Assembly (NCBI RefSeq): GCF_022747945.1
Contig: NZ_JALDST010000001.1
Location: forward strand, 5,518,001-5,582,000
Source: Micromonospora sp. R77
GTDB taxonomy: Bacteria > Actinomycetota > Actinomycetes > Mycobacteriales > Micromonosporaceae
Reading direction: 5' to 3'
Length of the DNA: 64,000 bases
A program made the translations under genes and the position numbers. Below, piece by piece: positions 29,296 through 55,545 of the stretch (the first letter of the stretch is position 1; every line of letters begins with the position of its first letter). Below the pieces are notes generated by a model. It was not told the DNA's origin. It saw only the letters and a list, made by a program, of their open reading frames with translations, and made no database searches.

Positions 29296-29356
29296 GTTGA
29301 TCATGGGGTTGGCGGCACCATCCGAGATCCACATCGCCGTCAACCTCATGATCAAC
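29296..29356. repeat. 61-bp palindromic element with GTTGATCATG ends
   Basis: Two 21-bp arms (29296-29316 and 29336-29356) pair with two mismatches around a 19-base loop; the outer ten bases GTTGATCATG/CATGATCAAC are perfect. It lies between convergent genes and overlaps the last codons of the minus-strand one (stop at 29352). Its AT-richer sequence is unlike the surrounding DNA. It looks like a dispersed palindromic repeat of Micromonospora-type genomes and could act as a bidirectional terminator. Confidence 0.65.
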
Positions 29357-30116
29357 CGCCGGACGGTGAGGAGGTGGTGGCGGTGGCGCGGAGGGCCTTG
29401 ACGATGGCGGGGACGGAGCCGATCAGGAGGACCAGTCCCCAGATGATCGCGACGACGGCGAAGAGCACGGCGCCGAGGTCGTCGGTGATGCTGACCAGGA
29501 TGGTGGGGACCAGGCGGTGCAGGAACTCCAGCACCACCGTGCAGAGCAGCGTGGTGAGCATCAGCAGCACCAGGCCCTTGTTCTGGAGGAAGCGGGGCTG
29601 GGCGAGGATCAGCAGGCCGGCCCAGATCAGCTTGAGCAGCAGGATCAGGCCGAGCAGCACGGCCGCGTCGCCGACCGGGAAGAAACCCCACACCGCGAGG
29701 TAGGCGAGCGTGCCGAACGGGGCGGCCAGGAAGAGCGACACCAGCACGGTCAGCTCCACGAAGGCCACCACCAGCAGCACCACCGACCCGAGCAGCAGCA
29801 GGACCGAGAAGATCAGCGTGGCGACGCCCTGGATCCGGCCCTGGATCCGGTCCGGCAGCACCAGGCTCAGGCAGAACAGCCCGGTCGTCCAGAGGGCGAC
29901 CACGTCGATCAGCGCCAGCGCGCCGGTGCCCCGCCCGGCGGGCTCGGTGACCCCGGCGACGTCACCGACGTCCACGCCGAGCTGGCCGGCGCTGTCCCGC
30001 AGCGCCTCGCCCGCGTCGCCGCCGCCGGTGAGCAGCGCGGCACCCAGCTCCAACGCCACCACCAGTGCCACCGCGAGCAGCGCCAGCAGCAGGAACGGTT
30101 TGCGCAGCTCACCCAT
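29352..30116 (-). CDS. Multi-pass membrane protein at the end of the injection-system cluster
   Basis: A 254-residue protein with one N-terminal helix (FLLLALLAVALVVALELGAA), a roughly 45-residue external segment, then five or more helices (for example LIFSVLLLLGSVVLLVVAFV and GLVLLMLTTLLCTVVLEFLH). I recognise no family. It lacks charged catalytic motifs. It follows the single-pass protein at 30138 by 21 bases and is the last gene of the minus-strand phage-tail-like cluster, so it may help the particle dock on or open the cytoplasmic membrane, or may simply be a neighbour. The last three codons lie in a palindromic repeat. Confidence 0.55.
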   Translation of the reverse strand: MGELRKPFLLLALLAVALVVALELGAALLTGGGDAGEALRDSAGQLGVDVGDVAGVTEPAGRGTGALALIDVVALWTTGLFCLSLVLPDRIQGRIQGVATLIFSVLLLLGSVVLLVVAFVELTVLVSLFLAAPFGTLAYLAVWGFFPVGDAAVLLGLILLLKLIWAGLLILAQPRFLQNKGLVLLMLTTLLCTVVLEFLHRLVPTILVSITDDLGAVLFAVVAIIWGLVLLIGSVPAIVKALRATATTSSPSGG

Positions 30117-30137
30117 GACGGGCCTCCTCGGCGTGGG

Positions 30138-30604
30138 TCAGGACCGGGCGACGGTGACCGCGCATCCCACACCTCCCGGGCAGCCCAGGGTGACCGTGGT
30201 GGCCCGGTCGACGGCGACCTTCGCGACGGCGTCCCCGCCGTCGGTGGGGGTCACCTCGTCGGAGACGGTGACGTCGGCGCCGCCGGGCGCGGGGGCGGAC
30301 ACCGTGAACGGTCCGCGGCTGCGCAGGATCAGGCTGCGCAGCCCGTCCGGCGCGGGCACCCCGAGCCGGCAGGAACCGGTGAAGGTGAGCACCCGCGCCC
30401 CGTCGGCGGTGGCCGGTCCGGCCGGGCAGTCGGCGGTGACCGTCGCCGGGTCGACCGTGGCGGTCGCCCGGCCCAGCCGGGACAGCCAGCCGGGCCGGGC
30501 GGCGGGTCGCCCCGGTCGTGCCGGCCCGCGCCCACCGCCACCAGGTAGAGCACCACCAGCAGCACCGCCAGGGCCGCCAGCAGCACCTTCTGCCGGCCGC
30601 TCAC
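30138..30604 (-). CDS. Single-pass membrane protein with external domain (frameshifted)
   Basis: About 155 residues when whole. GTG 30604 overlaps the preceding stop (GTGA) and encodes VSGRQKVLLAALAVLLVVLY, a clear N-terminal membrane helix. The remainder (WLSRLGRATATVDPATVTAD, then VLTFTGSCRLGVPAP and LGCPGGVGCAVTVARS) is in a second frame and looks like a small beta-rich extracytoplasmic domain with paired cysteines. Adding one base near 30497-30508 joins them. No family recognised. Position inside the contractile-system cluster suggests a surface or envelope accessory role; evidence is only contextual. Confidence 0.5.
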
Positions 30605-31524
30605 GGCTGGACGAGCTGGGTGAAGCGGATCTGGTCGATCCCGGCGAAGTAGCGGTCGAAGCCCTGGGTCTTGCTCACCGCCACCAGGGTCAGCTGGTGC
30701 GGACCCTTGCTCAGCTGCACCGTGCCGACGTCGACGAAGTCGGTCCGCACCACGGTCGGGCTGAAGCCGAAGAACGTGTCGCCGACCTGCCGGCCGTCCA
30801 CGGTGAAGATGGTGTTGGCGTAGTCGAACGAGGTGGTGCGTACCGTCGACAGCCGCCAGGTGCCGTCGACCGGGAGGTCCACGGTGACGGTGACCTGGTC
30901 GCCGACGGCCAGTCCGAGGAAGAACAGCTGCGCGTCGCCGGACCAGACCACGCCGCAGCAGTTCTTCTGCTCCACCACCTTCGCCGCCGCCCCCGACGGC
31001 GAGCGGACCACCGCGCCGGCCACCAGGCTCTCCGCCTCCAGCGTCACCACCTTCGGCGCGGCCGGCGCCGGCGGTGTGTCACCGCCGCGGCCGACCAGCC
31101 ACACCACCACCCCGGCCACGACCAGCACCAGCGCCGCGGCGGCCGCGAGCCACGCCCAGGGCACGCGCTTCGGGGGTACGACCGCCCGCACGTCGTACGT
31201 CACCCGGCCGCTGGAGCGGGAGCTCTCCTCCGGCGCGGTGTTCGCCGAGTACGCGAAGCCGGTCATGTCGTAGCGGCGGGGCGGCGTGCCCGGTGGCACG
31301 ACCAGCCGCACCAGGAAGGAGACCGAGCCCTGCCCGGGCACCACCCGCTGCGGCTCGGCCACGGTGAACCAGGAACGCTGGGTGCCCTCGCCCGGGGCCA
31401 CGTCGAACACCACGGTGTCCGGCGCCTCGCCCGGGTTGGAGACGGTGAAGGTCAGCTCGCCGGTGTTCCGCTCGTTCAGCGTGAACGCCCCGGCGGCGGC
31501 GACGACGGCCCATTCGGTGGTCAT
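30601..31524 (-). CDS. Membrane-anchored protein: N-terminal Ig-like domain, one helix, C-terminal CBM-like domain
   Basis: A 307-residue protein. Residues about 1-105 form a beta-rich Ig-like domain (FTLNERNTGELTFTVSNPGE, later VSFLVRLVVPPGTPPRRYDM). A single helix follows (WAWLAAAAALVLVVAGVVVW, about 120-140). The C-terminal 160 residues resemble a carbohydrate-binding jelly roll of the CBM6/35 type: it opens VVTLEAESLVAGAVV and ends FAGIDQIRFTQ. No signal peptide, so the Ig-like part should be cytoplasmic and the CBM-like part outside. It overlaps tail protein I (ATGA). It is a good candidate for tethering the particle to the membrane and cell wall, by analogy with the membrane protein CisA needed by Streptomyces particles; that analogy is my inference. 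Confidence 0.6.
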   Translation of the reverse strand: MTTEWAVVAAAGAFTLNERNTGELTFTVSNPGEAPDTVVFDVAPGEGTQRSWFTVAEPQRVVPGQGSVSFLVRLVVPPGTPPRRYDMTGFAYSANTAPEESSRSSGRVTYDVRAVVPPKRVPWAWLAAAAALVLVVAGVVVWLVGRGGDTPPAPAAPKVVTLEAESLVAGAVVRSPSGAAAKVVEQKNCCGVVWSGDAQLFFLGLAVGDQVTVTVDLPVDGTWRLSTVRTTSFDYANTIFTVDGRQVGDTFFGFSPTVVRTDFVDVGTVQLSKGPHQLTLVAVSKTQGFDRYFAGIDQIRFTQLVQP

Positions 31525-32144
31525 GACGGCTCCTCTGCTGCTGGTACGAGAGACGGGACGCGCGCCCGCCCGACCGCGCGGTCCGGGGTGGGGTCGACCG
31601 CGCCGGCCGGGGTCGAGTCGACCGGTGGTGGACCGGCGTCGTCGGGCAGGGTGATCTCGACGGTGACGGCGGCCGGTTTCTCCCCCTCGACGACGCGGGT
31701 GATCACGGCGAGCTGGTCGGCGGCGGCCGGCGGCACCCGGACCACCACGTGGAAGGGCCGCTCCGCCGGCTCGTCGAGGACGAACCCGGTCACCCCGGTG
31801 GCCAGCTCCAACGCGGTCCGCATCCCGTACGGGGTGCCCCGCCAGCGGGCCAGCAGCGCGCCGTGCGCCACCAGGTTCCGCAGCCGGCCCGGCGGCAACG
31901 GCACCGGCGCGCCACCCCCCGGGGCGGCCACCACGTGGTCCATCGCCACCCACCGGGTCAGGTACGCCACGAACCCGTCCGGCGCCCGGTACGGCGCGAA
32001 GAGCGCGTCGACGTCGGCGAGCACCGCCTCGTCCGGGGCGTGCAACGTCTCCATCACGTCCAGCAGCGCGCCGAGCACGCTGCCCGGCCCGGCCGCCCGC
32101 TGGTACGCCGCGGGCAGCAGCCGCTCAATCGCCGTTCGGCGCAT
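31521..32144 (-). CDS. Phage tail protein I-like baseplate protein (TIGR02242 type)
   Basis: A 207-residue protein. MRRTAIERLLPAAYQRAAGP at the start, then FLAYLTRWV-like FVAYLTRWVAMDHVV and LVAHGALLARWRGTPYGMRT, which match the tail_TIGR02242 domain of tail protein I homologues in actinobacterial contractile systems. It helps complete the baseplate wedge next to GpJ. ATG 32144 lies 20 bases inside the end of the GpJ gene. The C-terminal 40 residues are proline-rich and variable. It precedes the membrane-anchored Ig/CBM-like protein with an ATGA overlap. Confidence 0.82.
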   Translation of the reverse strand: MRRTAIERLLPAAYQRAAGPGSVLGALLDVMETLHAPDEAVLADVDALFAPYRAPDGFVAYLTRWVAMDHVVAAPGGGAPVPLPPGRLRNLVAHGALLARWRGTPYGMRTALELATGVTGFVLDEPAERPFHVVVRVPPAAADQLAVITRVVEGEKPAAVTVEITLPDDAGPPPVDSTPAGAVDPTPDRAVGRARVPSLVPAAEEPS

Positions 32145-34770
32145 CCTGCCGCACCACCTCGATGTCGTGCTCGCCGGAGCAGAGCAGCCAGGTCCCGGGA
32201 ACGGTCACCACGTCGGCGGTGGCCTGGTTGGCGCTGGCCGTCCAGTCGACGGCGTCGCCACTGCGGTACACCCCGCGTTCGCCGCCGGCCAGGACCAGCC
32301 GGCCCGTGCCGCCGGCGCCGGAGGTGGCGGCGAGCGCGTCCACCGGCACGAACCGGGTCCGGTCCCGCAGCGGCAGCCCGCAGTTGACCATCACCGGCTG
32401 CCACTGCGGCTGGGCAGCCAGGGTGTCCAGCCGCACCACCCCGCCGCTCTGCGTGGCGGCGACCGCGAGCGATCCGCTGAACGCCAGGTCGCGGCAGGTG
32501 CCGCCGATCCAGCCGCTCTGCACGCCCTGCCACTGCACGTCGGACTCGAAGAGCCGAGTGCGGTGGCAGCCCTGGCCAGGCTTCTTCGGGTCCGGCTCGC
32601 CGGCGCCGCTCCACAGCAGGGTGGCCGGGCCGTCGTACTGCACGGCGAGGATGCGGTTGTCCACGTTGGCGAGCCCGACGTGGGCGAAGCTGCCGGGGCG
32701 GCCGGCGGCGGTGGAGAGATAGACCCCGAAGCCGGCCTGCGCGGCCACCGCCACCCCCGGCGCGCCGCGCTCGGAGACGAACGCCCGGACGGCGTAGAAG
32801 CCGCGGTCGGCGTCGCCCGCGTCGACCAGGATCTGCAACGGCACCGAGCCGGGCAGCAGGGACACCTCGTAGAGCCCGGTGTCGGTGGCCAGCAGCAGGG
32901 CCCCGGTGCCGTCCCGGTCGATCCAGGCCAGGTCCTGGATGCGGGAGTCCAGGTCGGTCAGGAGCGACCACGTCTCGCCCAGGTCGGCGCTCAGGTGCAC
33001 CCGGGAACCCCCGGCGTCCCGGGCGGTGACCACGGCGACCGAGCCGGCGCGGGGCACGATCCCCGGGCGTAGCGGCGCGGGGGCGGGGGCGACCCGGACC
33101 ACGGTCTCCCCGTCGAACCGGCCGGCCGGCTCCCAGCCCGCCCCGGCGTTGGTGGAGCGGAACAGCACCGGGCCGCGCCCGGCGTACCAGGTGCCCGGCT
33201 GGTACTGGTCGACGGCGAGGGTGCGCACCTGCGCGTCCGGTGCCTCGTCGACGACGAACCGGACCGACTCGACGTACCGCACGCCCGGCTCGGCGTGCTC
33301 CAGCATCCGGTACACGTTGGACGCCCGCAGCGGCTCGCCGAACGCCCAGCCGGTGGGGTTGAGCGGGGTGGGCAGCGGGCTGAGCGTCTGGTGCAGCCGG
33401 TCGTGGATGCGCCGGCGGACCGCGTCGACGTCCTCCTCGCGGCGGACCACCACCCGGGCCCGGATCGACACCGCCTTGTAGCGGGCCCAGCCGACCCGGA
33501 CGGCGGTGCCGAGGGCGCGGCGGCCCTCCAGGTCCGCCTCCACCCGGCGGCGGGCCTCCGGCACCTCGTGCTCGCGCAGCACGTCCACCGGCAGCCGGCC
33601 ACCCGGGCGGGCCTGCTCCGGCACGTACGGCACCAGCACCACCTCGACCTCGCCGGGGCGGGCGAAGCTGTAGACGGCGGCCCGGGTGAAGGCCCGGGCC
33701 CGGGCCACCGCGCCGGAGCCGGCGGCGAGGATCTCGTAGTCCCGGGCGGTCACCGCGCGTTGCTGGGCGAAGAACTCGTACGGGCCCCGGGTCAGCGCCG
33801 ACTCCAGCGGCTCCAGGTCCCGGCCGCCACCGGCCGGCTCCGGATTCTCCACCCGCAGGCCGGGCAGCGGGTCGCGCAGGCTGGTCCGCGTTCCGGCGGC
33901 CACGTTGCCGGCCGGCCCGCCACCGCTGCGGTACCAGAGCCGCACCGGCCGCCCCGCCGGCGGCACCGCCGCCACCGTCACCGGCCCACCGGGTGACCCG
34001 GTGGGCGCTCCGGCGGTGTCCGGCGCGGGTACGGCGGTGTCGCCGGGCGCCGGGCGCAGGTCGAGGGCGGGGGCGAAGGTGACCACCCCGGACGCGCGGT
34101 CGACCAGGTAGACCCGGTCGGCCGGGCCGAGGCCCGCGAAGCTGTCCACCGGACGCCAGATCTCGTACGTCCGCCCGTCGTGCTCCCGGGCGGCGGCCCC
34201 CAGCTCCACCGAGCCGGCCGGCACCTCCACCCCGAGCAGCAGGTCCAGCGCCTCGGCGGTCCGGGTCAGCGGCGCCTTCGCCGCGCGCAGCACCTGACCG
34301 GGCTGGCCGGTGCCGACGCCGAGCAGCTCCGCCTCGACCGGCTCGCAGTGGTGCAGGCGTACCGTCACCTCGGTCTCCCCGGCGGGCAGCAGCGCCGGCT
34401 CGGTGGTGACGAAGACGACCGGCCGGGGGTCGGCGCCGCGGGCCGCGGCGACCCGGGTGCCGGCCGGGATCCGGACCGCGGCGCGATCCGGCCCGGTCCG
34501 GGTGAATCGGACGTCCGCCCAGGCCGCCGACGGCGGGTGCCGGGTCACCCCGAGCAAATTCAGGAACGCGACGTACGCCTTCTCCGGCAACTGGTTCAGC
34601 CGGTAGATCATCACCTCGGTGAGGTACGCGAACGCCTCCAGCAGCGCCATCCCCGGGTCGTGCGCGGAGAGGTCCGTCCAGTCGGGGCAGGACTGGCGGA
34701 TCCGTTCCCGCGCCTCGGTGACCAGGTCGAGGAAGGCGCGGTCGTCCAGGTGCGGCACCGGCAGCGTCAT
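32125..34770 (-). CDS. GpJ-family baseplate protein fused to an Asp-box beta-propeller
   Basis: An 881-residue protein. Residues about 1-520 are a TIGR02243-type baseplate assembly protein: LDDRAFLDLVTEARERIRQS, DWTDLSAHDPGMALLEAFAY, LTEVMIYRLNQLPEKAYVAF and later YEFFAQQRAVTARDYE and YKAVSIRARVVVRRE. Residues about 530-881 are different: they contain sialidase-type Asp boxes (FRSTNAGAGW about 538, LSADLGETW about 593, a degenerate YRSGDAVDW about 836) and repeated four-strand units, implying a beta-propeller. Typical GpJ proteins lack such a tail. It would project from the baseplate and might bind sugars or protein. ATG 34770 overlaps the gp25 stop. Structural role is well supported, propeller function is inferred. 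Confidence 0.85.
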   Translation of the reverse strand: MTLPVPHLDDRAFLDLVTEARERIRQSCPDWTDLSAHDPGMALLEAFAYLTEVMIYRLNQLPEKAYVAFLNLLGVTRHPPSAAWADVRFTRTGPDRAAVRIPAGTRVAAARGADPRPVVFVTTEPALLPAGETEVTVRLHHCEPVEAELLGVGTGQPGQVLRAAKAPLTRTAEALDLLLGVEVPAGSVELGAAAREHDGRTYEIWRPVDSFAGLGPADRVYLVDRASGVVTFAPALDLRPAPGDTAVPAPDTAGAPTGSPGGPVTVAAVPPAGRPVRLWYRSGGGPAGNVAAGTRTSLRDPLPGLRVENPEPAGGGRDLEPLESALTRGPYEFFAQQRAVTARDYEILAAGSGAVARARAFTRAAVYSFARPGEVEVVLVPYVPEQARPGGRLPVDVLREHEVPEARRRVEADLEGRRALGTAVRVGWARYKAVSIRARVVVRREEDVDAVRRRIHDRLHQTLSPLPTPLNPTGWAFGEPLRASNVYRMLEHAEPGVRYVESVRFVVDEAPDAQVRTLAVDQYQPGTWYAGRGPVLFRSTNAGAGWEPAGRFDGETVVRVAPAPAPLRPGIVPRAGSVAVVTARDAGGSRVHLSADLGETWSLLTDLDSRIQDLAWIDRDGTGALLLATDTGLYEVSLLPGSVPLQILVDAGDADRGFYAVRAFVSERGAPGVAVAAQAGFGVYLSTAAGRPGSFAHVGLANVDNRILAVQYDGPATLLWSGAGEPDPKKPGQGCHRTRLFESDVQWQGVQSGWIGGTCRDLAFSGSLAVAATQSGGVVRLDTLAAQPQWQPVMVNCGLPLRDRTRFVPVDALAATSGAGGTGRLVLAGGERGVYRSGDAVDWTASANQATADVVTVPGTWLLCSGEHDIEVVRQDAPNGD

Positions 34771-35198
34771 GTCGGGTCCCCCTCGGGTTCGTCGTCGCCG
34801 GAGAGGTCGACGGAGAAGACGAGCTGCCCGGGGGACAGGCTGGCCCGGACCAGGTAGTCGAGCCGGATCACCAGCCGCCACGGGTCGTCCGGATCGGGGC
34901 CGGCGTCCACGTCGATCACCTCGACCCGCGGCTCCCACCGGCGGATCGCCTGCCGGACATAGTGGATGGCCAGCCCGGCGGTGGTGTCGTCGTTGGGCGC
35001 GAAGACCAGCCGGTGCAGCCGGGAGCCGTACCCGGGCCGCATCAGCCGCTCGCCGGGCGTGGTGGACAGCAGCAGGAACAGCGCCTGGCGTACGGTCTCG
35101 TCGCCGTCGGTCATCGCGAGCCCGCCGGCCGCGGTCAACGCCGGCCCGCCGGTGCGCCCGGCGTCGAAGCCGGCGCCGACGAAGCGGAAGGCCCTCAT
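34767..35198 (-). CDS. gp25/GPW-like baseplate wedge protein
   Basis: A 143-residue protein. DGDETVRQALFLLLSTTPGE followed by RLMRPGYGSRLHRLVF and RQAIRRWEPRVEVIDV are the hallmark of the T4 gp25 family, which links the sheath to the baseplate in phages, T6SS and extracellular injection systems. ATG 35198 is chosen because it starts in the stop of the tip protein (ATGA). The N-terminal 28 residues before the core are slightly long for the family. Placed in the usual order VgrG, tip, gp25, GpJ. Confidence 0.9.
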   Translation of the reverse strand: MRAFRFVGAGFDAGRTGGPALTAAGGLAMTDGDETVRQALFLLLSTTPGERLMRPGYGSRLHRLVFAPNDDTTAGLAIHYVRQAIRRWEPRVEVIDVDAGPDPDDPWRLVIRLDYLVRASLSPGQLVFSVDLSGDDEPEGDPT

Positions 35199-35533
35199 CC
35201 GTCCGCCCCCAGGAAGTCCTGCCGCGCGGCGCGGACCCGGTGGTGGACCAGCCCCGGCGGGGTGCCGTCGGTCAGCCCGTCCAGGTTGTCCAGCACCACC
35301 CGGTGCCCGTCCACCCGCAGCCAGGTGCTGTAGCCGACGGTCACCCGCAGCGTCTTCACGCACGGCTTGATGGTCGGCCCGTAGTTCGGGCAGGCGGTGA
35401 TGTCCCGCCCCTCCGGGTCGGCGTCGACCAGCACGGGCACGCCCCGCACGGTCACCCACTGCTGCGAGGCGCGGTTGGCGACCCGGCCGTCGTGGTCGCA
35501 GGCGATCAGCGAGTCCCGGTGGATCCAGCGCAT
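35195..35533 (-). CDS. Probable spike-tip (PAAR-like) protein
   Basis: A 112-residue protein. The middle reads DITACPNYGPTIKPCVKTLR and then VTVGYSTWLRVDGHRVVLDN, with two cysteines and glycine/proline turns spaced as in small PAAR-like or DUF4280-like caps that sharpen a VgrG spike. It lies directly between the VgrG-like spike gene and gp25 and overlaps both by one to four bases, the position of Afp10-type tips. Sequence similarity to classic PAAR repeats is weak, so the call depends largely on context. Confidence 0.55.
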   Translation of the reverse strand: MRWIHRDSLIACDHDGRVANRASQQWVTVRGVPVLVDADPEGRDITACPNYGPTIKPCVKTLRVTVGYSTWLRVDGHRVVLDNLDGLTDGTPPGLVHHRVRAARQDFLGADG

Positions 35534-37116
35534 CAGCCACCTCCGTGGGCGCGGGCGAGGGTACGGGCCTGGGCGGCGGCGGTCTCGGCGTCCTCGCCTG
35601 ACTCGGCGCGCAGGAAGTCGACCGTCCGGGCGCGCACCACCATCGCCCGGCCGGGCGCGGAGAGCACCAGGTCACCGGCGGCGTGCACGGTGGTCAGCCC
35701 GGGGCGCAGCTCCACGAAGCTGCCCGCGTCGGTGGCCAGCCGCAGGGTCCGCCCGTCGTCGTCGATGACGATCGACTGGCCGGTGCCGGTCCGCATCGAC
35801 CAGCGCCGGGCCCGCCCGTCGACGATCCCCGCGTCGTACGGCTCGACCGCCCCGAAGAGCGAACCGAGCACGATCCCGGCGGTCGGCTCGCCACCGGGCA
35901 GCAGCACCAGCACGGTGTCCTCCGGGTCGGGCAGCGCGACGATGCCCTTGCCCCGCCCCGCGCCCGGGCAGACCACCGCCAGCCAGCCGGCGTCCAGCTC
36001 CCCGTACGCGGGCAGGGTCAGCCGGACCCGGCCGAGCCGGTCGGGGTCGTCGACGTCGGTGACCGTGCCGAGGGTGACCGTCGCCGGGGCCGGCGCCGGG
36101 CCGGGCGGCGGGCCGGGCGGGACGGTGGAGAACGCCGTCAGGTGACCGTCGGCGTCGACGGTGTGCACCACCTCGGTGAGCACGTACACCCCCGCGACGG
36201 GTTCCGGCACGCCGGTCAGGGCGATCCGCCGGCCAGGGCGCAGCGCCGGGTCGCCCTCGGCCACCCCCTCGGCGGTGACCAGGGTGGCGACCCGGGCGTC
36301 CAGCGCGGCCTGGGCCAGCGCGGCCAGTTCGTCGTCGCTGCGCCCCGGCTGGTCCACCGCGGTCCGTCCGCCGGCCGCCCCCACGTCACCCGGGTCGGGG
36401 CGCAGCGCGGTACGCCGGCCGGAGCGCGCCTCGGTGGCCTGCTGCCGCAGCGGTTCGGCGCGCTGCGGGTGCCAGCCGAGGGCGGTGCTCTCCCCGCCGG
36501 CCCGGTCCAGGTTCTCCGCGACCCGCAGGGTGTGCACGGTGCGGCCGAGCGTCAGCGGGACCGGTTCGCCGTACCCGTCGAGGGTGAGCAGCCGCAGCCG
36601 GTCGCCGTCGACCACCGGGTGCAGTCCGGCCCGGCCGGTCACCTCGGTCAGCAGCTCCAGGTCGGTGTGCCGGTGCTGGAGCAGCCGCTCCAGGCGGGGG
36701 CCGTCGGTCTGCGCGTCGACGGTCAGGCCGAGGTCGGCGCAGAGCTCCCGGGCCAGGTCGGCGGCGGTCACCGACTCGAACACCCGCAGCTCCTGCCGCT
36801 TGCGCAACCGGTGCAGCGGGTCGTACGCCCGGATCCGCAGCAGCGCCGGCCCGTCCGCCGCGTAGGCCAGCTCGACGCAGGTCACCTCGCCGGTGAAGAG
36901 CGGGTCGGGGTGACCGTCGAGGCACACGTCGAGAGTGGCGCCGGGGCGTACCGGCGGGTCGAGGGCGGCGGCGCCCAGGGCGGTGGCCAGGGTCAGCTCG
37001 CACTGGGTGGGCCGGCCCAGCCGGGCGGCCACCCGGATGCCGCGCAGGCGGCCGGTCACCGCGTCCGGCAGCGGGACGCCGTCGACCGCGACGGTCGGGG
37101 TGCGGGGCACGGTCAC
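35533..37116 (-). CDS. VgrG-like central spike protein
   Basis: A 527-residue protein. The N-terminal gp27-like half contains PTQCELTLATAL, LLRIRAYDPLHRLRKRQELR and DLELLTEVTGRAGLHPVVDG, and the central OB-fold has TLGTVTDVDDPDRLGRVRLT, AGWLAVVCPGAGRGKGIVAL and PDPEDTVLVLLPGGEPTAGI, the canonical gp5/VgrG OB block. A beta-helical end follows (GQSIVIDDDGRTLRLATDAG). The GTG start overlaps the tube-adaptor stop. This is the membrane-piercing spike of the particle; the short C-terminus carries no obvious effector domain. Confidence 0.9.
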   Translation of the reverse strand: MTVPRTPTVAVDGVPLPDAVTGRLRGIRVAARLGRPTQCELTLATALGAAALDPPVRPGATLDVCLDGHPDPLFTGEVTCVELAYAADGPALLRIRAYDPLHRLRKRQELRVFESVTAADLARELCADLGLTVDAQTDGPRLERLLQHRHTDLELLTEVTGRAGLHPVVDGDRLRLLTLDGYGEPVPLTLGRTVHTLRVAENLDRAGGESTALGWHPQRAEPLRQQATEARSGRRTALRPDPGDVGAAGGRTAVDQPGRSDDELAALAQAALDARVATLVTAEGVAEGDPALRPGRRIALTGVPEPVAGVYVLTEVVHTVDADGHLTAFSTVPPGPPPGPAPAPATVTLGTVTDVDDPDRLGRVRLTLPAYGELDAGWLAVVCPGAGRGKGIVALPDPEDTVLVLLPGGEPTAGIVLGSLFGAVEPYDAGIVDGRARRWSMRTGTGQSIVIDDDGRTLRLATDAGSFVELRPGLTTVHAAGDLVLSAPGRAMVVRARTVDFLRAESGEDAETAAAQARTLARAHGGG

Positions 37117-37855
37117 GAGGGCTGACCTCCCGTCGGGGCCGGTGCGACGGCCGGCGGCACGGCCAGGGCGGTGCCGGCCGGCACGGTCAGCGGGTCGCTG
37201 ATCCGGTTGTGCTCGGCGAGCAACCGCCAGCGCAGCGGCGAGCCGAGCGCGTCGTGCGCCAGCAGGTCGAACCGACCCCGGACCAGCCGGGCTCCGCGGC
37301 GCCGTCGGCGGCGGCCACCACCGCCGAGCCGGGCGGCACGGTCGGCGTGCTGGCGGTGGCCAGCTCGTCCGCGAAGCCCTCCCGGGCCGCCTCGGCGTTC
37401 TCGGCGACCCGGACCAGCTTGAGCCGCAGCCAGGACCGGCGCGGGCTGCCGGTGAGGGTGAACGCGTCGAAGCGTTCCGCCACCGCGACGATCACGCCGG
37501 GCACGTTCCACGTCTTGCCCCAGACCAGGCGGACCAGCGGCGGGCGGAGCCAGCCGTGCTCGGTGGCGGAGTTCTCCGCCAGCAGCCACAGCGGCGCGGT
37601 CAACGTGCGGACGTCGTCGGGGCGTACCTGCGCCTCCACGAAGTCGACGTCGAAGAGCAGGTCCAGCACCAGCTCGGTGCGCCCGCCGCCGGTGAAGACG
37701 AGCGGGTCGTCGGCGAGGCCGGCGCCGGTGAGCCGGCCGTCGGCGGCGTGCCGGGGGCGTACCCCGGCCAGCCGGGTGACCCGGACGGTCTCCGGGTTGA
37801 GCAGGCAGTCGACCCGGATGCCGGACTCGTCCACCAGGAAGGCGACCCGTTCCAT
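37113..37855 (-). CDS. LysM-containing tube/baseplate adaptor, Afp7-like (frameshifted)
   Basis: About 247 residues when whole. ATG 37855 starts MERVAFLVDESGIRVDCLLN; the CIS-tube part includes RTELVLDLLFDVDFVEAQV, LWLLAENSATEHGWLRPPLV and GVIVAVAERFDAFTLTGSPR. The C-terminal LysM-like segment (WRLLAEHNRISDPLTVPAGT) is in another frame; adding one base near 37289-37300 joins them through ARLVRGRFDLLAHDALGSPL. This protein connects the tube end to the VgrG spike in extracellular injection systems. Its start shares an A with the stop of the upstream proline-rich gene (TGATG). Confidence 0.85.
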
Positions 37856-39234
37856 CAGCCACCGTCCTGTTCCCGGGCCAACCGGCGCAGATGGGCCGCG
37901 TCGCGGGCGGCGCTGGCGGCGCCCACACCTCCCGGTCGTCGGCAACGCGGGCCACGGGTCGCCGTGGCCCGCCATCCGCGCGTCCGCGCCCGCCCACCGG
38001 TCGGTCCGGTCCGCCAACCCCGGGGTACGTCCGCCGCCCGGCCGCCCGGTTCGCCCTCCGGCAGCGTCGGCCAGTGGTCGGTGGGCGCCTCGGCCGGTTC
38101 CGTCCACCGGTGGTGCGGGTCACCGGCGACCGCCGGTCGTCCCGTCGGAGGTGGTCGGCGGTTCGCCGGCCGTCCCCGCGACGGTGGCCGGGCGGCGGCG
38201 TCGCAGCCCGCTCGGGGTGGACCGGTACCGGTCGGCCGGACCGGTCGCGCTGGTCCGGCCCCGGCCGATCTTCCCACCGACCAGGCTCCGCCGGTCGCGT
38301 CGACCGGGAGCCGCTGTGGCGAAGTCCAGTGGGGCAGCCGCCATGGGGGCCGCCGGACGGGACGGCTCGGCCGAACCGACGCCGGCCGACGGGGCTGCCT
38401 CAGTGGACGGCCGCCGGTCCGGCTGGCGTCGTTGCTGCTCCGACACCGGGTGCAGCCGCAGTCCACCGCGCTCCCGAACGGCTGCCCGGCCCGGATCCAC
38501 GGCCGATGTCCCGGCGACCACCGGACGGACGGGTCCGTCGCCGGCTGCCGCACCGCCCGACGGCTCGGGGTGCCCGCGTGGCGGCAGCGGGTCGCTCGGG
38601 CCCGGCCGGTCCGTGCCCGGCGGGGTCGACGGGTCCCCTCGACCCGGCCCGGGAGCCACGGCCGGCGACGCCACCTCCGGTGCGGGGACGCGGCCGGCGC
38701 GTCCGACACCGACGCGTCCGATGCGGCCGACCGCGCCGATGCCGGCTCGTCAGGCGTTGACCGACGCGGCGTCGACACGTCGGGCGCGACGGGTACTTCG
38801 TGCCGACCGGGGTGCCCGGGTGGACGGCGAACGGCCAGTTCCGGCCGGCCGAACCACCGCGACCAGCCCCGCACCCGGGAACCGCCCCGCCCGCCCCTGC
38901 CCTCCCCGATCAGGAGGTCCGCGTCGGCCACGGGGTCCGAGCCGCCCGGAACCACCTGATCAGCGAGGTCGGCGGGGGGAAGGGGTGGGCGGTCGCCCAG
39001 CAGGCCGGGGGCGTGGGCGGCGACCAGGCGCAGCCAGTGCTCCGGAGGCTCGCCGGGGCGACGTGGTGGTGACGCGGCACCGGGGGCCGGCCCGGCGGAC
39101 GGGTCGGGCGAACGGCGCGGGCGACCGGGGTCCGGTCCGGCCGGCTCGACGGCGCGGGCCAGCCGGTCGACGGTCACGGCGGCGGCCCGCAGCCGCCGAG
39201 CCAGCCAGTCACGCGGGCGTCGGGGCGGCCGCAC
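37855..39234 (-). CDS. Arginine/proline-rich low-complexity protein of the injection cluster
   Basis: A 459-residue protein if the frame is intact. Only the ends look folded: an amphipathic start (DWLARRLRAAAVTVDRLARA), EHWLRLVAAHAPGLLGDRP, a short conserved-looking DLADQVVPGG with ADADLLIGEGRG, and a C-terminal AAHLRRLAREQDGG. The middle 300 residues are Arg/Pro/Gly/Ser-rich and may contain undetected frameshifts. The reading frame is supported by coupling at both ends: it overlaps the tube gene by 26 bases and its TGA shares a base with the next ATG. It sits where a tape measure or chaperone might be, but no coiled-coil ruler is visible. Function unknown. Confidence 0.55.
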   Translation of the reverse strand: MRPPRRPRDWLARRLRAAAVTVDRLARAVEPAGPDPGRPRRSPDPSAGPAPGAASPPRRPGEPPEHWLRLVAAHAPGLLGDRPPLPPADLADQVVPGGSDPVADADLLIGEGRGGRGGSRVRGWSRWFGRPELAVRRPPGHPGRHEVPVAPDVSTPRRSTPDEPASARSAASDASVSDAPAASPHRRWRRRPWLPGRVEGTRRPRRARTGRARATRCRHAGTPSRRAVRQPATDPSVRWSPGHRPWIRAGQPFGSAVDCGCTRCRSSNDASRTGGRPLRQPRRPASVRPSRPVRRPPWRLPHWTSPQRLPVDATGGAWSVGRSAGAGPARPVRPTGTGPPRAGCDAAARPPSRGRPANRRPPPTGRPAVAGDPHHRWTEPAEAPTDHWPTLPEGEPGGRAADVPRGWRTGPTGGRARTRGWRATATRGPRCRRPGGVGAASAARDAAHLRRLAREQDGG

Positions 39235-39691
39235 CGCCGGCCTCCAGGTCCAGTCCCTCGTACGCCAGGGTCAGCGCCTCGATGGCGATCTCCTGGGCCA
39301 GGGTGTTGAGGTGGGCGCCCCGCCACCGGGTGGGCCACGCGTTGATCATGTTCCAGCGCAGCACCTCGCTGGTGCCGGCCGGGTCGAGCAGCACCACCGA
39401 GACGTTGCGCCGGCTCACCGCGCCCCGGGCCGCCGCGTTGACCCAGTCCCACAGCTCGCGGGAGGAGGTGAGGCCGAAGTGGAGGGTGACCGGGGCGTAC
39501 TCGACCTGACCCGGCACCGAGCGCACCCGGTCGTTGCCGGCCTCCCGGTACGCCAGCGGCGCGATGTTCACCTCCAGCCCGCTGACCTCGGTGAAGTGCC
39601 CGTTGGTGATGCCGTTGATGAGCAGCTTGAAGTTGTACGCCCGGTACGGGTCGACGGGGGCGCCGGGTTGCGGGGTGGCCGTGGTCGCCAT
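39209..39691 (-). CDS. Contractile-system tail tube protein (T4 gp19-like)
   Basis: A 160-residue protein. AYNFKLLINGITNGHFTEVS with GLEVNIAPLAYREAG, then VRSVPGQVEYAPVTLHFGLT and LNTLAQEIAIEALTLAYEG, match the phage tail tube/Hcp-like family of actinobacterial injection particles. It polymerises into the inner tube. It lies just behind the sheath gene with only one base between stop and start. Only one tube gene is present, where many extracellular systems have two or three. Confidence 0.92.
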   Translation of the reverse strand: MATTATPQPGAPVDPYRAYNFKLLINGITNGHFTEVSGLEVNIAPLAYREAGNDRVRSVPGQVEYAPVTLHFGLTSSRELWDWVNAAARGAVSRRNVSVVLLDPAGTSEVLRWNMINAWPTRWRGAHLNTLAQEIAIEALTLAYEGLDLEAGGAAAPTPA

Positions 39692-39692
39692 G

Positions 39693-40928
39693 TCAGCCTC
39701 CGATCGTCTCGGTCTCGGTGCCGCCGGCCCACTGGCTCAGCTTGAACACCACGAACTCCGCGGGCTTCACCACCGCGATGCCGATGTGGGCGACCACCAT
39801 CCCGGCGTCGCGGACGTCGGCCGGGTTGGTCTCCTCGTCGCACTTGACGAAGAACGCCTCCTCGGGGGTGCGCCCGAGCAGCGCGCCGTCCCGCCACACC
39901 CGGGTGAGGAACGCGCCGATGTCCCGCCGGATCGACCGCCACAGGGAGAAGTCGTTCGGCTCGAAGACCATCCACCGGGTGCCACCGGCGATGGCCTGCT
40001 CGATGGCGATGGAGAGCCGACGGACGTTCAGGTAGCGCCACTCGCTGGCCTCGGCGGCGAGCGTACGGGCGCCCCAGAGCCGGATGCCCTCCCCGGCGAA
40101 GTAGCGGATCACGTTGACGCCCTTGGGGTTGAGCACGTCGTGTTCGGGGCGGGTGACCAGGTAGCCGAGGTCGACCGCGCCGCGTACCGGCTCGTTGGCG
40201 GGGGCCTTGTGCACGCCGCGCAGCGCGTCGGTGCGGGCCCAGATGCCGGCGATGTGCCCGCTGGGCGGGGTGAGCACCAGCTCACCGCTGAGCGGGTCCC
40301 GGACCCGGATCCACGGGAAGTAGCAGGTGCCGAAGTCCGACTGCCGGGGCCGGTACGCGGGCTGCCCGTCGCCGTCGTCGGCGGGGGGTTTGGGCGTACC
40401 CTCGGCGGGTTTGCCGTCGGCGGCGGCCTTCGGTCTCGGCGGCGTGGCGACCCGGGTGAGGCCGGAGATGTCCTCGATGTCCGGCGCGGGGTCGCAGATC
40501 GCCACCATGGTGCGCAGCCGTTCGGCCATGCTGAGCAGCGCCTCGTGGGAGACCGGGTCGTGGAAGCCGGGCGCGGCCAGGATGGAGATCTCGTCGACCG
40601 CCTCCAGCAGTTGCAGCCCGCCCCGGCGTCCGCCGGTGCCGGTGAGCTGGCCGCCCTCGCCGACGTTGACCACCCAGCAGCGGGTGCCGCCGTTGTCGAG
40701 GAAGCCGAAGACCGCCCGCGCGAGGGGGGTGCTCTCCGGGTGCTCCCCGCCGGCATAGAGCCGGAGGAACTCCGACCAGCTGTTCACCGCGACGGCCCGG
40801 TCGACGTGCGCGCCGCGGTCCGGGGCGACGCCGACGAAGGCGGCCGTGCTGGTGCCGACCGGTCCGATCGGGCGGGCGCCGCTGGGCACCTCCTCGACAT
40901 AGATGCCGGGGGAGAAGTAGGTGGGCAT
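39693..40928 (-). CDS. Contractile tail sheath protein
   Basis: A 411-residue protein. The N-terminal MPTYFSPGIYVEEVPSGARP, then TSTAAFVGVAPDRGA, and the C-terminal GALLGRTPEEAFFVKCDEET, NPADVRDAGMVVAHIGIAVV and KPAEFVVFKLSQW are the conserved sheath blocks that make the interlocking strands. The middle carries a variable lysine/proline-rich insertion. It forms the outer contractile cylinder. AGGAGG precedes ATG 40928. This is the clearest marker that the cluster encodes a contractile injection apparatus. Confidence 0.96.
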   Translation of the reverse strand: MPTYFSPGIYVEEVPSGARPIGPVGTSTAAFVGVAPDRGAHVDRAVAVNSWSEFLRLYAGGEHPESTPLARAVFGFLDNGGTRCWVVNVGEGGQLTGTGGRRGGLQLLEAVDEISILAAPGFHDPVSHEALLSMAERLRTMVAICDPAPDIEDISGLTRVATPPRPKAAADGKPAEGTPKPPADDGDGQPAYRPRQSDFGTCYFPWIRVRDPLSGELVLTPPSGHIAGIWARTDALRGVHKAPANEPVRGAVDLGYLVTRPEHDVLNPKGVNVIRYFAGEGIRLWGARTLAAEASEWRYLNVRRLSIAIEQAIAGGTRWMVFEPNDFSLWRSIRRDIGAFLTRVWRDGALLGRTPEEAFFVKCDEETNPADVRDAGMVVAHIGIAVVKPAEFVVFKLSQWAGGTETETIGG

Positions 40929-40962
40929 CGGTCCTCCTGTGCGGGTGCGGTCGGTGACCGGC

Positions 40963-41649
40963 TCAGTCGGCCGGCGGCGCGCAGACGATCACGGGGTCGG
41001 GATCGGCCGGGTCGAGTTCGGCGAGGTGGGTACGGCCCCGGCCGACCAGCCGCAGGTGCAGCGGCCGGCCCGGCGCGGCGGGGTCGTGCGGCACCCCGAC
41101 CAGCCGGAACCGGCCGGCGCTGTCGGTGTGCGTGGCGGTGCCGGTGCCGACCAGCTCGACCCGCATCGCGGCGAGGGGCTGCTGCTGCGGGCCGACCACC
41201 CGGCCGTCCAGGGTGCGCAGCTCCAGTTGGCGCAGCCGCAGCGGTTGCAGCACCGGCGGAGCCGCCGGGGCCGGTCGGGCGATCTGGGCGGGCACGTCGA
41301 CCAGCAGCGCCGGCCGGGGCGGCACGCCGAAGGCCCGCCACAGCGCCGGGTCACCGGCGTCGAGGACCAGTTCCGGTTCGCCGGCCGTCGCGGCGGCGGC
41401 CAGCACCCGGTCCAGCCGGGGCAGCGCGGCCGGCCCGGTGCCGCAGACCAGCAGCCGGAGCACGAACCGGTACGGCTCGCGCGCCCCGCCGCTGCCCCGG
41501 GTCTGCCGGGCCGGCCGCAGCTCCAACGGCCAGACGGTGAGCCCGCCGTCCGGGTCGTCCCGGGGCGGGCCGACCGGGACGGGTTCGCCCGCCGCCCCGG
41601 TCAGCCATGCCGCGAGGTCGGCGGTGGCGGCCTCGATCGCTCCGGTCAT
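40963..41649 (-). CDS. Probable tail terminator (DUF4255/Pvc16-like) with C-terminal CnaB-like domain
   Basis: A 228-residue protein. The first 115 residues (PLELRPARQTRG, EPYRFVLRLLVCGTGPAALP and LDRVLAAAATAGEPELVLDA) have the layout of the Pvc16/DUF4255 cap that finishes the sheath in extracellular injection systems. The C-terminus is a carboxypeptidase-regulatory-like beta-sandwich (LRTLDGRVVGPQQQPLAAMR, then DSAGRFRLVGVP). ATG 41649 overlaps the stop of the upstream membrane gene. Position before the sheath gene suits a cap. Family assignment is tentative because sequence identity to known caps is low by eye. Confidence 0.55.
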   Translation of the reverse strand: MTGAIEAATADLAAWLTGAAGEPVPVGPPRDDPDGGLTVWPLELRPARQTRGSGGAREPYRFVLRLLVCGTGPAALPRLDRVLAAAATAGEPELVLDAGDPALWRAFGVPPRPALLVDVPAQIARPAPAAPPVLQPLRLRQLELRTLDGRVVGPQQQPLAAMRVELVGTGTATHTDSAGRFRLVGVPHDPAAPGRPLHLRLVGRGRTHLAELDPADPDPVIVCAPPAD

Positions 41650-42254
41650 CGCGGCGGCGTCCCCTGGATCCGGTACGCGATGGCCTCGTTCCAGACGTGC
41701 GGGTAGACGCCGATCTCGAAGTAGCGGGTGAAGCGGTTGATCGGCGCGTTGGTGTGGTCGTGCCAGAGCAGCCAGACCGGGGCGATGGTGAACAGCGCGT
41801 AGTTCAGCGCCACCAGGGGCAGGTAGAGCGGCCCGAGCAGCCGGGCCTGGAAGACGTGCACGTCCTCGTGCCGCTGGATGCCGGGGCTGGAGCCGGCGCA
41901 GACCGTGCCGATGGTGGTGGCGTACCGGGGTGAGACGCCCTCGACCACGTTGACCCGCCCGCTGCCCGCCGACGCGGTCCGGTCGAGCTGGTGGCCGACG
42001 ATCAGGTGGCCGACCAGATAGATCGCTCCGGCGACGGTGTTGAGCAGGCTCCAGGTGTGGTCGACGACGAAGAGGAAGATCCCCTTCGCGTCGGCGGCGT
42101 ACGTGCCGGCGGAGGAGACCGCCCAGCCGAAGGGCGCGCCGACGAGCAGTCCGACGACGGCGCCGATCAGCAGTCCGAGGGTGCCGCCGGCGGTCTGGCC
42201 GAGCAGCGCGCCGAGGGCGATGTGGACGACGGCGCTGATGATTCCGAGGACCAT
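41646..42254 (-). CDS. Glycine-zipper membrane protein with HExxH metallopeptidase-like motif
   Basis: A 202-residue protein. The N-terminus is hydrophobic and rich in small residues (GALLGQTAGGTLGLLIGAVV then GLLVGAPFGWAVSSAG), with further helices around HTWSLLNTVAGAIYLVGHLI and PLYLPLVALNYALFTIAPVW. QRHEDVHVFQARLLGPLYLP (about 129-148) carries HExxH followed by a Q and LGPLYLP, as in a family of membrane-associated zinc-peptidase-like proteins; a downstream NEAIAYR may give the third ligand. No close functional analogue is known in injection clusters. It could process the envelope or the particle. It overlaps the terminator-like gene by four bases. Confidence 0.55.
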   Translation of the reverse strand: MVLGIISAVVHIALGALLGQTAGGTLGLLIGAVVGLLVGAPFGWAVSSAGTYAADAKGIFLFVVDHTWSLLNTVAGAIYLVGHLIVGHQLDRTASAGSGRVNVVEGVSPRYATTIGTVCAGSSPGIQRHEDVHVFQARLLGPLYLPLVALNYALFTIAPVWLLWHDHTNAPINRFTRYFEIGVYPHVWNEAIAYRIQGTPPR

Positions 42255-42265
42255 GGGGTCACCTC

Positions 42266-42610
42266 TCAGACCCAGGAGCGGATGTAGCGGGGCTCGCGAC
42301 CCTGCGCGAGCTGGGTCGGCGACGCACTTGTCGCCTGCCGGTTGCCCGGCGGCAGCTGGTTGACGCCGAGCGCGGCGGAGAAGATGACCAGCCCGTTGAA
42401 GAAGGCGATGATCCACTTCTGGGCGCCGGCGTCGGCGGCGAACGCCGCGGTGAGGTAGGACAGCGCGAGGGCGATGCCCAGCGCGATCCACTTGCGGGCC
42501 TTGTCGCCGTCGGGGCCGAGCAGTCCGCCGATGACGTTGGCGGCCAGCAGGGTGGCGGCGCTCGCGCCGGTCAGGCTGCCGAGGGCGGCCCAGGTGAAGA
42601 GATCGTTCAC
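42266..42610 (-). CDS. Small three-helix membrane protein (holin-like in layout)
   Basis: A 114-residue protein with three hydrophobic segments (AALGSLTGASAATLLAANVI, WIALGIALALSYLTAAFAA and WIIAFFNGLVIFSAALGVN) and a polar C-terminal tail ending GREPRYIRSWV. The GTG start follows GGGAGA. It is the first gene of the injection cluster, 11 bases before the HExxH membrane protein. Its size and topology are those of phage holins, which could give the particle a way out of the cell, but nothing in the sequence proves pore formation. Confidence 0.55.
   Translation of the reverse strand: MNDLFTWAALGSLTGASAATLLAANVIGGLLGPDGDKARKWIALGIALALSYLTAAFAADAGAQKWIIAFFNGLVIFSAALGVNQLPPGNRQATSASPTQLAQGREPRYIRSWV

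Positions 42611-51874: not shown

Positions 51875-55545
<3,671 letters not shown>

What the first reader, a model, noticed from the sequence alone, without database searches (positions are those of the whole stretch)
29352..42610. Compact contractile injection-particle cluster with no visible ATPase, tape measure or fibre gene
Seen: sheath, one tube, LysM adaptor, VgrG spike, tip-like protein, gp25, GpJ, tail protein I and a probable tail terminator, in one minus-strand run of about 15 overlapping genes, bounded by a palindromic repeat at one end. Known: Afp/PVC-type and Streptomyces particles normally carry an AAA+ ATPase (Afp15), a tape measure (Afp14), and two or more tube genes. None is recognisable here; instead there are five membrane proteins interleaved. 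Inferred: this is a distinct lineage, perhaps intracellular and membrane-docking rather than released, with length control and loading done by unknown or remote genes.
Basis: partly seen in the sequence, partly recalled or inferred. Interest (0 to 1): 0.75.

Follow-up and report, generated by a model that had tools for sequence, protein, structure and literature searches.

The report
Cargo-less, membrane-linked bacterial injection particle
A soil bacterium carries genes for a spring-loaded, phage-tail-like needle that lacks the usual cargo-loading parts but travels with its own membrane protein, which suggests a needle that pierces the cell's own membrane; related clusters occur in at least five bacterial phyla, and the piercing itself is still a prediction.

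Summary
One minus-strand operon encodes a contractile injection system (CIS): probable terminator, short sheath, one tube, adaptor, spike, tip, gp25, GpJ, tail protein I, then three membrane proteins. It belongs to a lineage: the set is in 20 of 20 fetched Micromonosporaceae loci; of 59 long loci kept from a scan of named genomes (14 of the 20 recur among the 80 kept), one tube gene is found in 59, the multi-helix protein mTM in 58, a CIS ATPase in 0 (within the DNA held). In 150 family genomes mTM occurs in exactly the 26 with the full-length lineage sheath. Genomes with only this CIS lack the ATPase's winged-helix domain (0 of 18; other-CIS genomes 45 of 56) and, with one weak exception, the eCIS_core cargo domain (1 of 18; 18 of 18 chosen others). 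GpJ ends in a conserved Asp-box, propeller-like region. Caspase-like genes flank 14 of 24 long loci outside Micromonospora, not the window's. Best reading: an ATPase-free CIS lineage that docks to the membrane from inside and punctures its own cell. Lineage and content are shown; docking and death are inferred. Missing tape measure, missing fibres and membrane dependence are already known for Streptomyces CIS. Adaptor and S1 are frameshifted in this assembly.

The parts
42695..43489 (-). LppM-domain membrane protein at the upstream edge; membership uncertain
   Evidence: PF21946 E 6.6e-30; orthologues flank the Micromonospora loci and some Hamadaea loci only
42266..42610 (-). small holin-like membrane protein; membership uncertain
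   Evidence: PF16079 E 0.0099, below the curated cut-off; relatives in Micromonospora loci and a weaker one beside the terminator gene in Actinopolymorpha L137
41646..42254 (-). TM2, membrane protein of unknown function; membership uncertain
   Evidence: Orthologues in Micromonospora and some Hamadaea loci; no Pfam match above cut-off
40963..41649 (-). probable tail terminator/cap (Cis16-like), with a C-terminal carboxypeptidase-regulatory-like domain
   Evidence: Alignment A2: Pvc16_N in 2 of 16 members (best 2.9e-5, not the window's), CarboxypepD_reg in 15 of 16
39693..40928 (-). contractile sheath, 411 aa (short form)
   Evidence: PF04984 1.5e-14 and PF17482 2.1e-14; best solved match 8BKY/9GTP, 341 bits
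39209..39691 (-). the only tube gene found in the genome
   Evidence: PF06841 1e-34; single genome-wide hit; NCBIfam CIS5 adaptor 108 bits against CIS1 tube 47 bits, both under cut-off
37855..39234 (-). X, 459-aa Pro/Arg-rich ORF between tube and adaptor (Afp6 position, recalled); C-terminal end alike in relatives by eye, middle variable and low in complexity
   Evidence: Same place in 21 relatives measured, 298-661 aa, 9-21% Pro; no PHROG or Pfam match
37113..37855 (-). tube-spike adaptor (CIS_tube) with a C-terminal piece in another frame; reading frame broken in this assembly
   Evidence: PF19266 1.9e-10; frames; one frame in relatives
35533..37116 (-). VgrG-like spike
   Evidence: PF05954 and PF04717
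35195..35533 (-). conserved tip-like protein, 112 aa
   Evidence: No Pfam match; 46-68% identity in 12 of 12 non-Micromonosporaceae loci compared
34767..35198 (-). baseplate gp25 protein
   Evidence: PF04965 1.1e-23
32125..34770 (-). baseplate wedge GpJ, 881 aa; residues about 516-881 are an Asp-box, propeller-like extension
   Evidence: PF04865; C-terminal profile A6 matches short stretches of BNR/GH74/sialidase chains; Sortilin-Vps10 in 7 of 24 members, none in the window member; NF045728 26.9 bits, under cut-off
31521..32144 (-). baseplate tail protein I
   Evidence: PF09684 1.8e-4, just over cut-off; TIGR02242 2.2e-11, under cut-off
30601..31524 (-). CisA-like protein with one membrane-spanning segment: N-terminal domain conserved in actinobacterial relatives, TM segment, exchangeable outer domain
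   Evidence: Alignment A4; window member has no Pfam match, PASTA in 7 of 16 members, CBM_35, CBM_6 and NPCBM_assoc in one each; no convincing match to IId CisA-like proteins
30138..30604 (-). S1, single-TM protein; frame broken in this assembly
   Evidence: ORFs 30329-30604 and 30138-30392; intact, about 150-165 aa, in relatives
29352..30116 (-). mTM, protein with about 8 TM segments (hydropathy count) that marks the lineage
   Evidence: Present in exactly the 26 of 150 family genomes that have the full-length lineage sheath; alignments A1, A5
29296..29356 (.). palindrome between convergent genes; a dispersed repeat of this genome, not CIS-specific
   Evidence: 58 half-site matches genome-wide

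Best explanation
This is a member of a distinct, widespread lineage of contractile injection systems. It lacks canonical cargo loading (no WHD-AAA+ ATPase, no eCIS_core cargo domain) and has a dedicated membrane module (CisA-like protein, S1, multi-TM mTM) plus a propeller-like extension on the baseplate wedge protein GpJ. Proposed mechanism: particles assemble in the cytoplasm from terminator, sheath, a single tube protein and the baseplate. The baseplate docks from inside onto the membrane module, with the conserved GpJ extension as the likely contact. An exchangeable outer domain of the CisA-like protein (sugar-binding-like or peptidoglycan-binding-like) reports the state of the wall. Contraction drives an essentially empty tube through the cell's own membrane, much as an R-type pyocin depolarises a target (recalled). 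In some relatives caspase-like proteases encoded nearby may belong to the same death pathway. Shown: gene content, lineage, co-occurrence, family matches. Inferred: docking, trigger, empty tube, self-killing.
For: Gene set in 20 of 20 family loci. Of 80 loci kept from 408, 59 are at least 15 kb with a sheath: tube 59 (one each), terminator 59, CisA-like 59, S1 55, mTM 58, ATPase 0; the ATPase profile finds 6 of 6 known ones when each is left out in turn. mTM in 26 of 150 genomes, identical to the 26 with the full-length lineage sheath. PF22977: only this CIS 0 of 18, this plus other CIS 6 of 8, other CIS only 45 of 56, no sheath match 0 of 68. eCIS_core: 1 of 18 (weak, E 4.8e-5) against 18 of 18 other-CIS genomes that I picked from 56. 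The GpJ extension keeps 39-61% identity in 12 outside loci, close to the GpJ core's 47-65%, while the CisA outer domain finds no match there: this fits a fixed partner better than a variable prey receptor. CHAT or C14 genes flank 14 of 24 long loci outside Micromonospora/Verrucosispora against 0 of 10 other-type CIS loci. The S. coelicolor CIS is cytoplasmic, needs the membrane protein CisA to fire and mediates cell death (PMC12237407).
Against: Nothing shows that the GpJ extension binds the membrane proteins. The CisA-like proteins show no convincing homology to three IId-like CisA proteins (hhalign probability 10.6, 14 columns). The CisA N-terminal domain of the window matches by BLAST in only 5 of 12 outside loci, and profile scores for CisA and S1 are low in many loci outside the better-known actinobacteria (for example CisA 24-74 bits in 8 of 59, S1 21-48 bits in 6 and absent in 4), so the module beyond mTM is less sure there. 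'ATPase 0 of 59' is limited by the DNA held (median 3.5 kb upstream of the sheath ORF); 4 of 10 other-type CIS loci also showed no ATPase in their 20-kb stretch. PF22977 misses 11 of 56 other-CIS genomes, an ATPase without it is not excluded, and genome-wide absence was tested only in Micromonosporaceae. The split sheath variant G112/L059 and the second Rhizocola copy L058 lack mTM. The Micromonospora loci, the window's included, show no CHAT/C14 neighbour. Non-canonical cargo, for example X, is possible. The window copy may be dead if its frameshifts are real.
Confidence: 0.5

Rival explanations
1. A released, extracellular CIS in which the GpJ extension is the receptor-binding part (a fibre substitute) and the holin-like protein helps release.
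For: The extension resembles Asp-box proteins that act on glycans or bind proteins; holin-like ORF 42266-42610; many fibre genes were reported in Actinobacteriota eCIS (PMC12923769, passages).
Against: The extension is nearly as conserved as the GpJ core across phyla, unlike a prey-binding domain; mTM stays linked; the holin match is below cut-off; no lysin family matched among the cluster proteins scanned.
Confidence: 0.2
2. A cell-to-cell secretion machine like the type VI secretion system: the membrane proteins form a docking platform and the tube is fired outwards into neighbours.
For: A membrane module with a multi-TM protein and outer sugar- or PASTA-type domains; the lineage also occurs in Gram-negatives.
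Against: No effector or immunity family matched among the cluster proteins scanned; no CIS ATPase match and no Walker-A motif in the called ORFs of the 20 family loci; the window's mTM has no Pfam match.
Confidence: 0.17
3. Simply a reduced member of type IId that works exactly like the Streptomyces CIS, with loading by an unrecognised ATPase or none needed.
For: Closest solved sheath is the S. coelicolor one; a membrane protein follows the baseplate genes; no tape measure or fibre in either.
Against: Sheath group separate from IId-like rows (94/99); one tube gene instead of two; ATPase domain and eCIS_core not found; S. coelicolor needs its ATPase for activity (PMC10020575).
Confidence: 0.1
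4. A decaying phage-tail remnant without function.
For: Adaptor and S1 frames are broken in this assembly.
Against: In relatives these genes are in one frame and the order is kept; an unrelated gene nearby shows the same kind of break, pointing to assembly error.
Confidence: 0.03

Closest known systems
Streptomyces coelicolor CIS (eCIS subtype IId; PDB 8BKY, 9GTP)
   Same: Nearest solved sheath (341 bits); gp25, GpJ, VgrG and adaptor types; a cap protein; no tape measure, no fibres; a bitopic membrane protein encoded after the baseplate
   Different: Here one tube gene, no ATPase with the winged-helix domain, no eCIS_core protein found, 411-aa sheath (534 there), GpJ 881 aa with extension (652 in 9GTP), additional S1 and mTM; no convincing sequence match between the CisA-like proteins and three IId-like ones
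Afp/PVC extracellular CIS
   Same: Sheath, tube, adaptor, spike, gp25, GpJ types; X lies between tube and adaptor as Afp6 does (recalled)
   Different: No Afp13 fibre, Afp14 tape measure or Afp15 ATPase recognised; one sheath and one tube gene
R-type pyocins/tailocins
   Same: Tail protein I baseplate, no ATPase, no cargo system, one tube gene (pyocin features partly recalled)
   Different: No tape measure, fibre or lysis cassette recognised; dedicated membrane proteins; terminator with a Pvc16_N signal in orthologues
Cyanobacterial thylakoid-anchored CIS (tCIS)
   Same: Idea of anchoring to an internal membrane through a baseplate extension (PMC12237407 text)
   Different: Sheath match much weaker (7B5H, 162 bits; that this entry is tCIS is recalled); other extension and membrane partners

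Membership tests
Contractile injection system (phage-tail-like particle) | Contractile sheath, tube, spike and baseplate genes together | tested here: met
eCIS as usually defined | AAA+ ATPase in the region ('invariably', PMC10020575, passage) | tested here: not met
   0 of 59 long loci within the DNA held (profile control 6 of 6); PF22977 absent from the own genome and from 18 of 18 genomes with only this CIS
eCIS as usually defined | Pvc16_N-type tail terminator | tested here: met
   Through orthologues only: 2 of 16 members match Pvc16_N (best 2.9e-5); the window member does not
eCIS as usually defined | eCIS_core (DUF4157) associated effectors | tested here: not met
   1 of 18 genomes with only this CIS (weak, E 4.8e-5) against 18 of 18 picked other-CIS genomes
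eCIS subtype IId | Sheath groups with the Streptomyces type | tested here: inconclusive
   Separate group of 18 rows (94/99) from four IId-like rows, of which L060 is typed by 688 bits to 8BKY; no Streptomyces row in the tree and the subtype definition was not read
eCIS subtype IId | Two tube genes (cis1a, cis1b) | tested here: not met
   one in the genome, one in 59 of 59 long loci
eCIS subtype IId | CisA membrane protein downstream of baseplate genes | tested here: inconclusive
   Position and one-TM layout match; sequence homology not detected with a three-sequence IId-like profile
Type VI secretion system | TssJLM membrane complex and ClpV | tested here: not met
   No such Pfam family in mTM, the CisA-like proteins, one S1 or the other cluster proteins scanned
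R-type pyocin | Tape measure, tail fibre and lysis genes | tested here: not met
   None recognised in the proteins scanned; only a sub-threshold holin match
Intracellular death-mediating CIS | Cytoplasmic particles that cause cell death | not testable with these tools
   needs cryo-tomography and deletion strains

The most novel reading that the evidence does not exclude
A pan-phylum class of intracellular CIS without any cargo-loading apparatus that acts as a built-in pyocin against its own cell: fixed to the membrane by a dedicated module whose outer sensor domain is exchanged between lineages (CBM-like, PASTA), docked through a conserved propeller-like baseplate extension, and wired to caspase-like proteases in some hosts.
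Probability: 0.33. Interest if true: 0.88.

Novelty: new variant of a known kind. Interest (0 to 1): 0.7.

Why it matters
One of the papers read here calls the AAA+ ATPase invariable in eCIS regions, and cargo injection is usually taken as the purpose. A lineage in at least five phyla that lacks the ATPase domain and, where tested, nearly always the cargo domain, yet keeps a membrane protein in 26 of 26 family genomes with its full-length sheath, separates contraction from cargo delivery. It offers a small system (soil Micromonospora) to ask how a particle docks to a membrane from inside, how length is set without a recognised tape measure, and whether bacterial caspase-like proteases and contractile particles can form one death pathway.

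Tried and rejected
Considered and rejected: X as tape measure (no match, Pro-rich, variable length; that a ruler should be helical and low in proline is recalled); a remote CIS ATPase (PF22977 absent; own-genome hits to a CIS ATPase cover only its AAA part, from residue 405 of 658 onwards); the palindrome as a CIS-specific border (genome-wide repeat); homology of the CisA-like proteins with IId CisA-like proteins (not convincing). eCIS_core absence from the own genome alone had no positive anywhere, so it was repeated with positive genomes.

Limits: 14 of the 20 family loci recur among the 80 named loci, so the two surveys overlap. The 21 of 80 loci that are under 15 kb or lack a sheath were left out of the count of 59; of all 80, 75 have mTM, and the 5 without are four short contigs and L142. 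Walker-A motifs do occur in flanking ORFs of L137, L148, L151, L152 and L157 and in the VgrG of L150; none matched a CIS ATPase. In the tree the rows nearest the lineage are the two sheaths of L056 (86/96, open fork), not IId, and D-type rows are long branches; L137 is too long and L148 too short at the N-terminus. G112, with a split variant sheath, was counted under other CIS. The 'this plus other CIS' group is my reading, whose match list was cut. The CHAT and C14 profiles were built from these loci's own proteins; Pfam confirmed CHAT in L045, L047, L137 and L154 and C14 in L155 and L160; L150 and the rest rest on the profiles alone; the Catellatospora loci are close kin; KJ-029 (L141) is counted outside Micromonospora by its title. 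mTM relatives number 1224 at E <= 0.001 among 8000 scored candidates, 120 listed; their CIS linkage was not tested. One search has no row for the window because my script picked a wrong record; the window's X is.

Not found in print: no paper describing this lineage appeared in the listings (open-licence PMC only; lists capped). The 2019 paper that defined the eCIS subtypes was neither searched for by title nor read.


Full report
1. What is there. The window lies in a 7.14-Mb, 99.94%-complete genome. On the minus strand, 43489 to 29352, sixteen genes follow one another with junctions from -26 to +84 nt: LppM-like, holin-like, TM2, terminator, sheath, tube, X, adaptor, VgrG, tip, gp25, GpJ, tail protein I, CisA-like, S1, mTM. 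The genome gives one sheath and one tube match.

2. Breaks. The adaptor gene loses its frame ahead of its C-terminal piece, and S1 is split into two ORFs. In the relatives looked at both are in one frame. The adenosine deaminase at 43741-44732 is split in the same way, its two ORFs matching consecutive parts of PF00962. Three breaks in about 15 kb, one of them in an unrelated enzyme, point to sequencing error; this is inference.

3. It is a lineage. Of 150 family genomes, 82 have some sheath match; 26, the own one included, have a full-length match, the other 25 at 65-92% identity. In 20 fetched loci the order terminator-sheath-tube-X-adaptor-VgrG-tip-gp25-GpJ-tail protein I-CisA-like-S1-mTM holds in 20 of 20 (S1 by the profile). 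A GpJ scan of named genomes gave 408 relatives, of which the best 80 were kept: Micromonospora, Hamadaea, Catellatospora, Dactylosporangium, Microlunatus, Actinopolymorpha, one Mycobacterium sp. record, Ktedonobacter, Dictyobacter, a Chloroploca, an Acidobacterium, Marinobacterium, a Desulfobacteraceae MAG and others. Phyla were looked up for Ktedonobacter (Chloroflexota), Marinobacterium (Pseudomonadota), Desulfobacteraceae (Thermodesulfobacteriota), Acidobacterium (Acidobacteriota) and Actinopolymorpha (Actinomycetota); Pseudomonadota, Thermodesulfobacteriota and Acidobacteriota rest on one locus each. Of the 80, 59 are at least 15 kb long with a sheath: tube 59 (one each), terminator 59, CisA-like 59, S1 55, mTM 58, CIS ATPase 0. 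Fourteen of the 20 family loci recur among the 80. The ATPase profile finds 6 of 6 known CIS ATPases when each is left out in turn, but the loci hold only a median of 3.5 kb upstream of the sheath ORF, and 4 of 10 other-type CIS loci also show none in 20 kb, so the genome-wide test below carries more weight. In a sheath tree the 18 lineage rows form one group (94/99), apart from four IId-like rows (88/84); the rows next to it are the two L056 sheaths on a poorly supported fork. L060 is called IId-like because its sheath matches the solved S. coelicolor sheath at 688 bits, against 341 for the window's.

4. No recognised cargo loading. PF22977 is in 3 of 3 CIS ATPases tested. In 150 family genomes it occurs in 51 at E <= 0.001 (50 over cut-off): 0 of 18 with only this CIS, 6 of 8 with this and another, 45 of 56 with only other CIS, 0 of 68 without a sheath match (Fisher 0/18 against 45/56, p = 5e-10; the genomes are related, so the p-value overstates). 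It thus misses 11 of 56 other-CIS genomes. eCIS_core PF13699 occurs in 18 of 18 other-CIS genomes that I picked out of 56, and in 1 of 18 with only this CIS (weak, E 4.8e-5). Joint absence fits a role of the ATPase in loading cargo (Pvc15, PMC11495950, start of the abstract seen in the listing).

5. The membrane module. mTM (about 8 TM segments by hydropathy) occurs in 26 of 150 genomes, exactly those with the full-length lineage sheath, and keeps 37-55% identity to the window copy in 11 of 12 outside loci. Variants without S1 and mTM exist: the second Rhizocola copy (L058, the same place as L142) and L059 of G112, whose sheath is split. A class-wide draw of 394 genomes gave 2 hits, both in this genus, so the lineage is patchy. 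The CisA-like protein has an N-terminal domain, one TM segment and an outer domain that differs between lineages: PASTA in 7 of 16 members, CBM_35 and CBM_6 in one each, no Pfam match in the window's. Its N-terminal domain matches by BLAST in 5 of 12 outside loci only; profile scores for it and S1 are low in the distant loci. In several outside loci mTM lies on the other strand or the other side of the cluster but stays near.

6. GpJ extension. GpJ is 881 aa, against 652 in 9GTP. A profile of residues 516-881 matches short stretches of Asp-box proteins: BNR glycosyl hydrolase 3B7F (E 1e-8, about 36 residues), GH74-type enzymes and a sialidase (the GH74 label is recalled); Sortilin-Vps10 in 7 of 24 members. 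A propeller fold is likely but not modelled. Identity to the window in 12 outside loci is 39-61%, against 47-65% for the core, while the CisA outer domain finds no match. Such conservation suggests a fixed partner; this is inference.

7. Neighbours. CHAT or C14 caspase-like genes flank 14 of the 24 long loci outside Micromonospora/Verrucosispora, in several positions and phyla, and 0 of 10 other-type CIS loci, all of these from Micromonosporaceae (p = 0.0017, close kin included). The Micromonospora loci, the window's among them, have the LppM/holin-like/TM2 genes instead. The association supports a death function in part of the lineage only.

8. What is already known. For S. coelicolor CIS (IId) the literature states no tape measure, no fibres, cytoplasmic particles, and firing that depends on the membrane protein CisA (PMC12237407: abstract and sections 3, 6, 7, 9 read; PMC10066040 and PMC10020575: passages). 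Its ATPase is dispensable for particle formation but needed for activity (PMC10020575). Roseiflexus CIS are placed in IId, with an ATPase gene and no close cisA (PMC12998442, passages). Tape-measure-related effectors occur in actinobacterial CIS (PMC13277306: abstract, sections 5 and 10). Fibres were catalogued in PMC12923769, eCIS surveyed in PMC8213781 and in metagenomes in PMC12210884 (passages). So membrane docking has precedent; the ATPase-free, single-tube, mTM-linked lineage was not found described in the searches made.

9. Mechanism. Shown: parts, order, lineage, co-occurrence, family matches. Inferred: particles form in the cytoplasm, dock by the GpJ extension to the membrane module, receive a wall signal through the outer domain, and puncture the cell's own membrane without cargo. 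Rivals are a released particle using the extension as receptor binder and a T6SS-like outward device. X remains unexplained: 298-661 aa, Pro-rich, C-terminal end alike by eye; how length is set is open.

10. Verdict. Real and conserved; a new variant of a known kind, with the Streptomyces type IId CIS as the nearest solved relative but outside it in gene content; interest 0.7.

Noticed in passing
29296-29356: Palindrome belongs to a dispersed repeat: the half-site pattern has 58 matches genome-wide at up to 1 mismatch (0 for the reversed-pattern control), often in pairs 45 nt apart.
   Followed up: partly
43741-44732: Adenosine deaminase split over two ORFs matching consecutive parts of PF00962; probably an assembly indel.
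   Followed up: partly
L047:15466-18018, L045:15382-17874, L137:278-2227, L154:14284-17226, L160:3-2765, L155:1-1362: CHAT or caspase (C14) genes beside CIS clusters of this lineage, in several phyla.
   Followed up: partly
L058 (5959-17259), L059 (5652-17703): Variant clusters of the lineage without S1 and mTM; in L059 the sheath is split over two ORFs.
   Followed up: no
L043:14200-16264, L127:13076-15562: Loci with two CisA-like genes; in L043 the N-terminal domains agree and the outer domains differ.
   Followed up: no
L056:16640-19708: CIS ATPase fused to a BTAD transcriptional-activator domain in a two-sheath cluster.
   Followed up: no
window 51875-55549 and 61290-62441: A 1224-aa and a 383-aa ORF that look like cobalamin-pathway genes (CobN and CbiD, recalled, not tested) in the same window, beyond the CIS region.
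   Followed up: no
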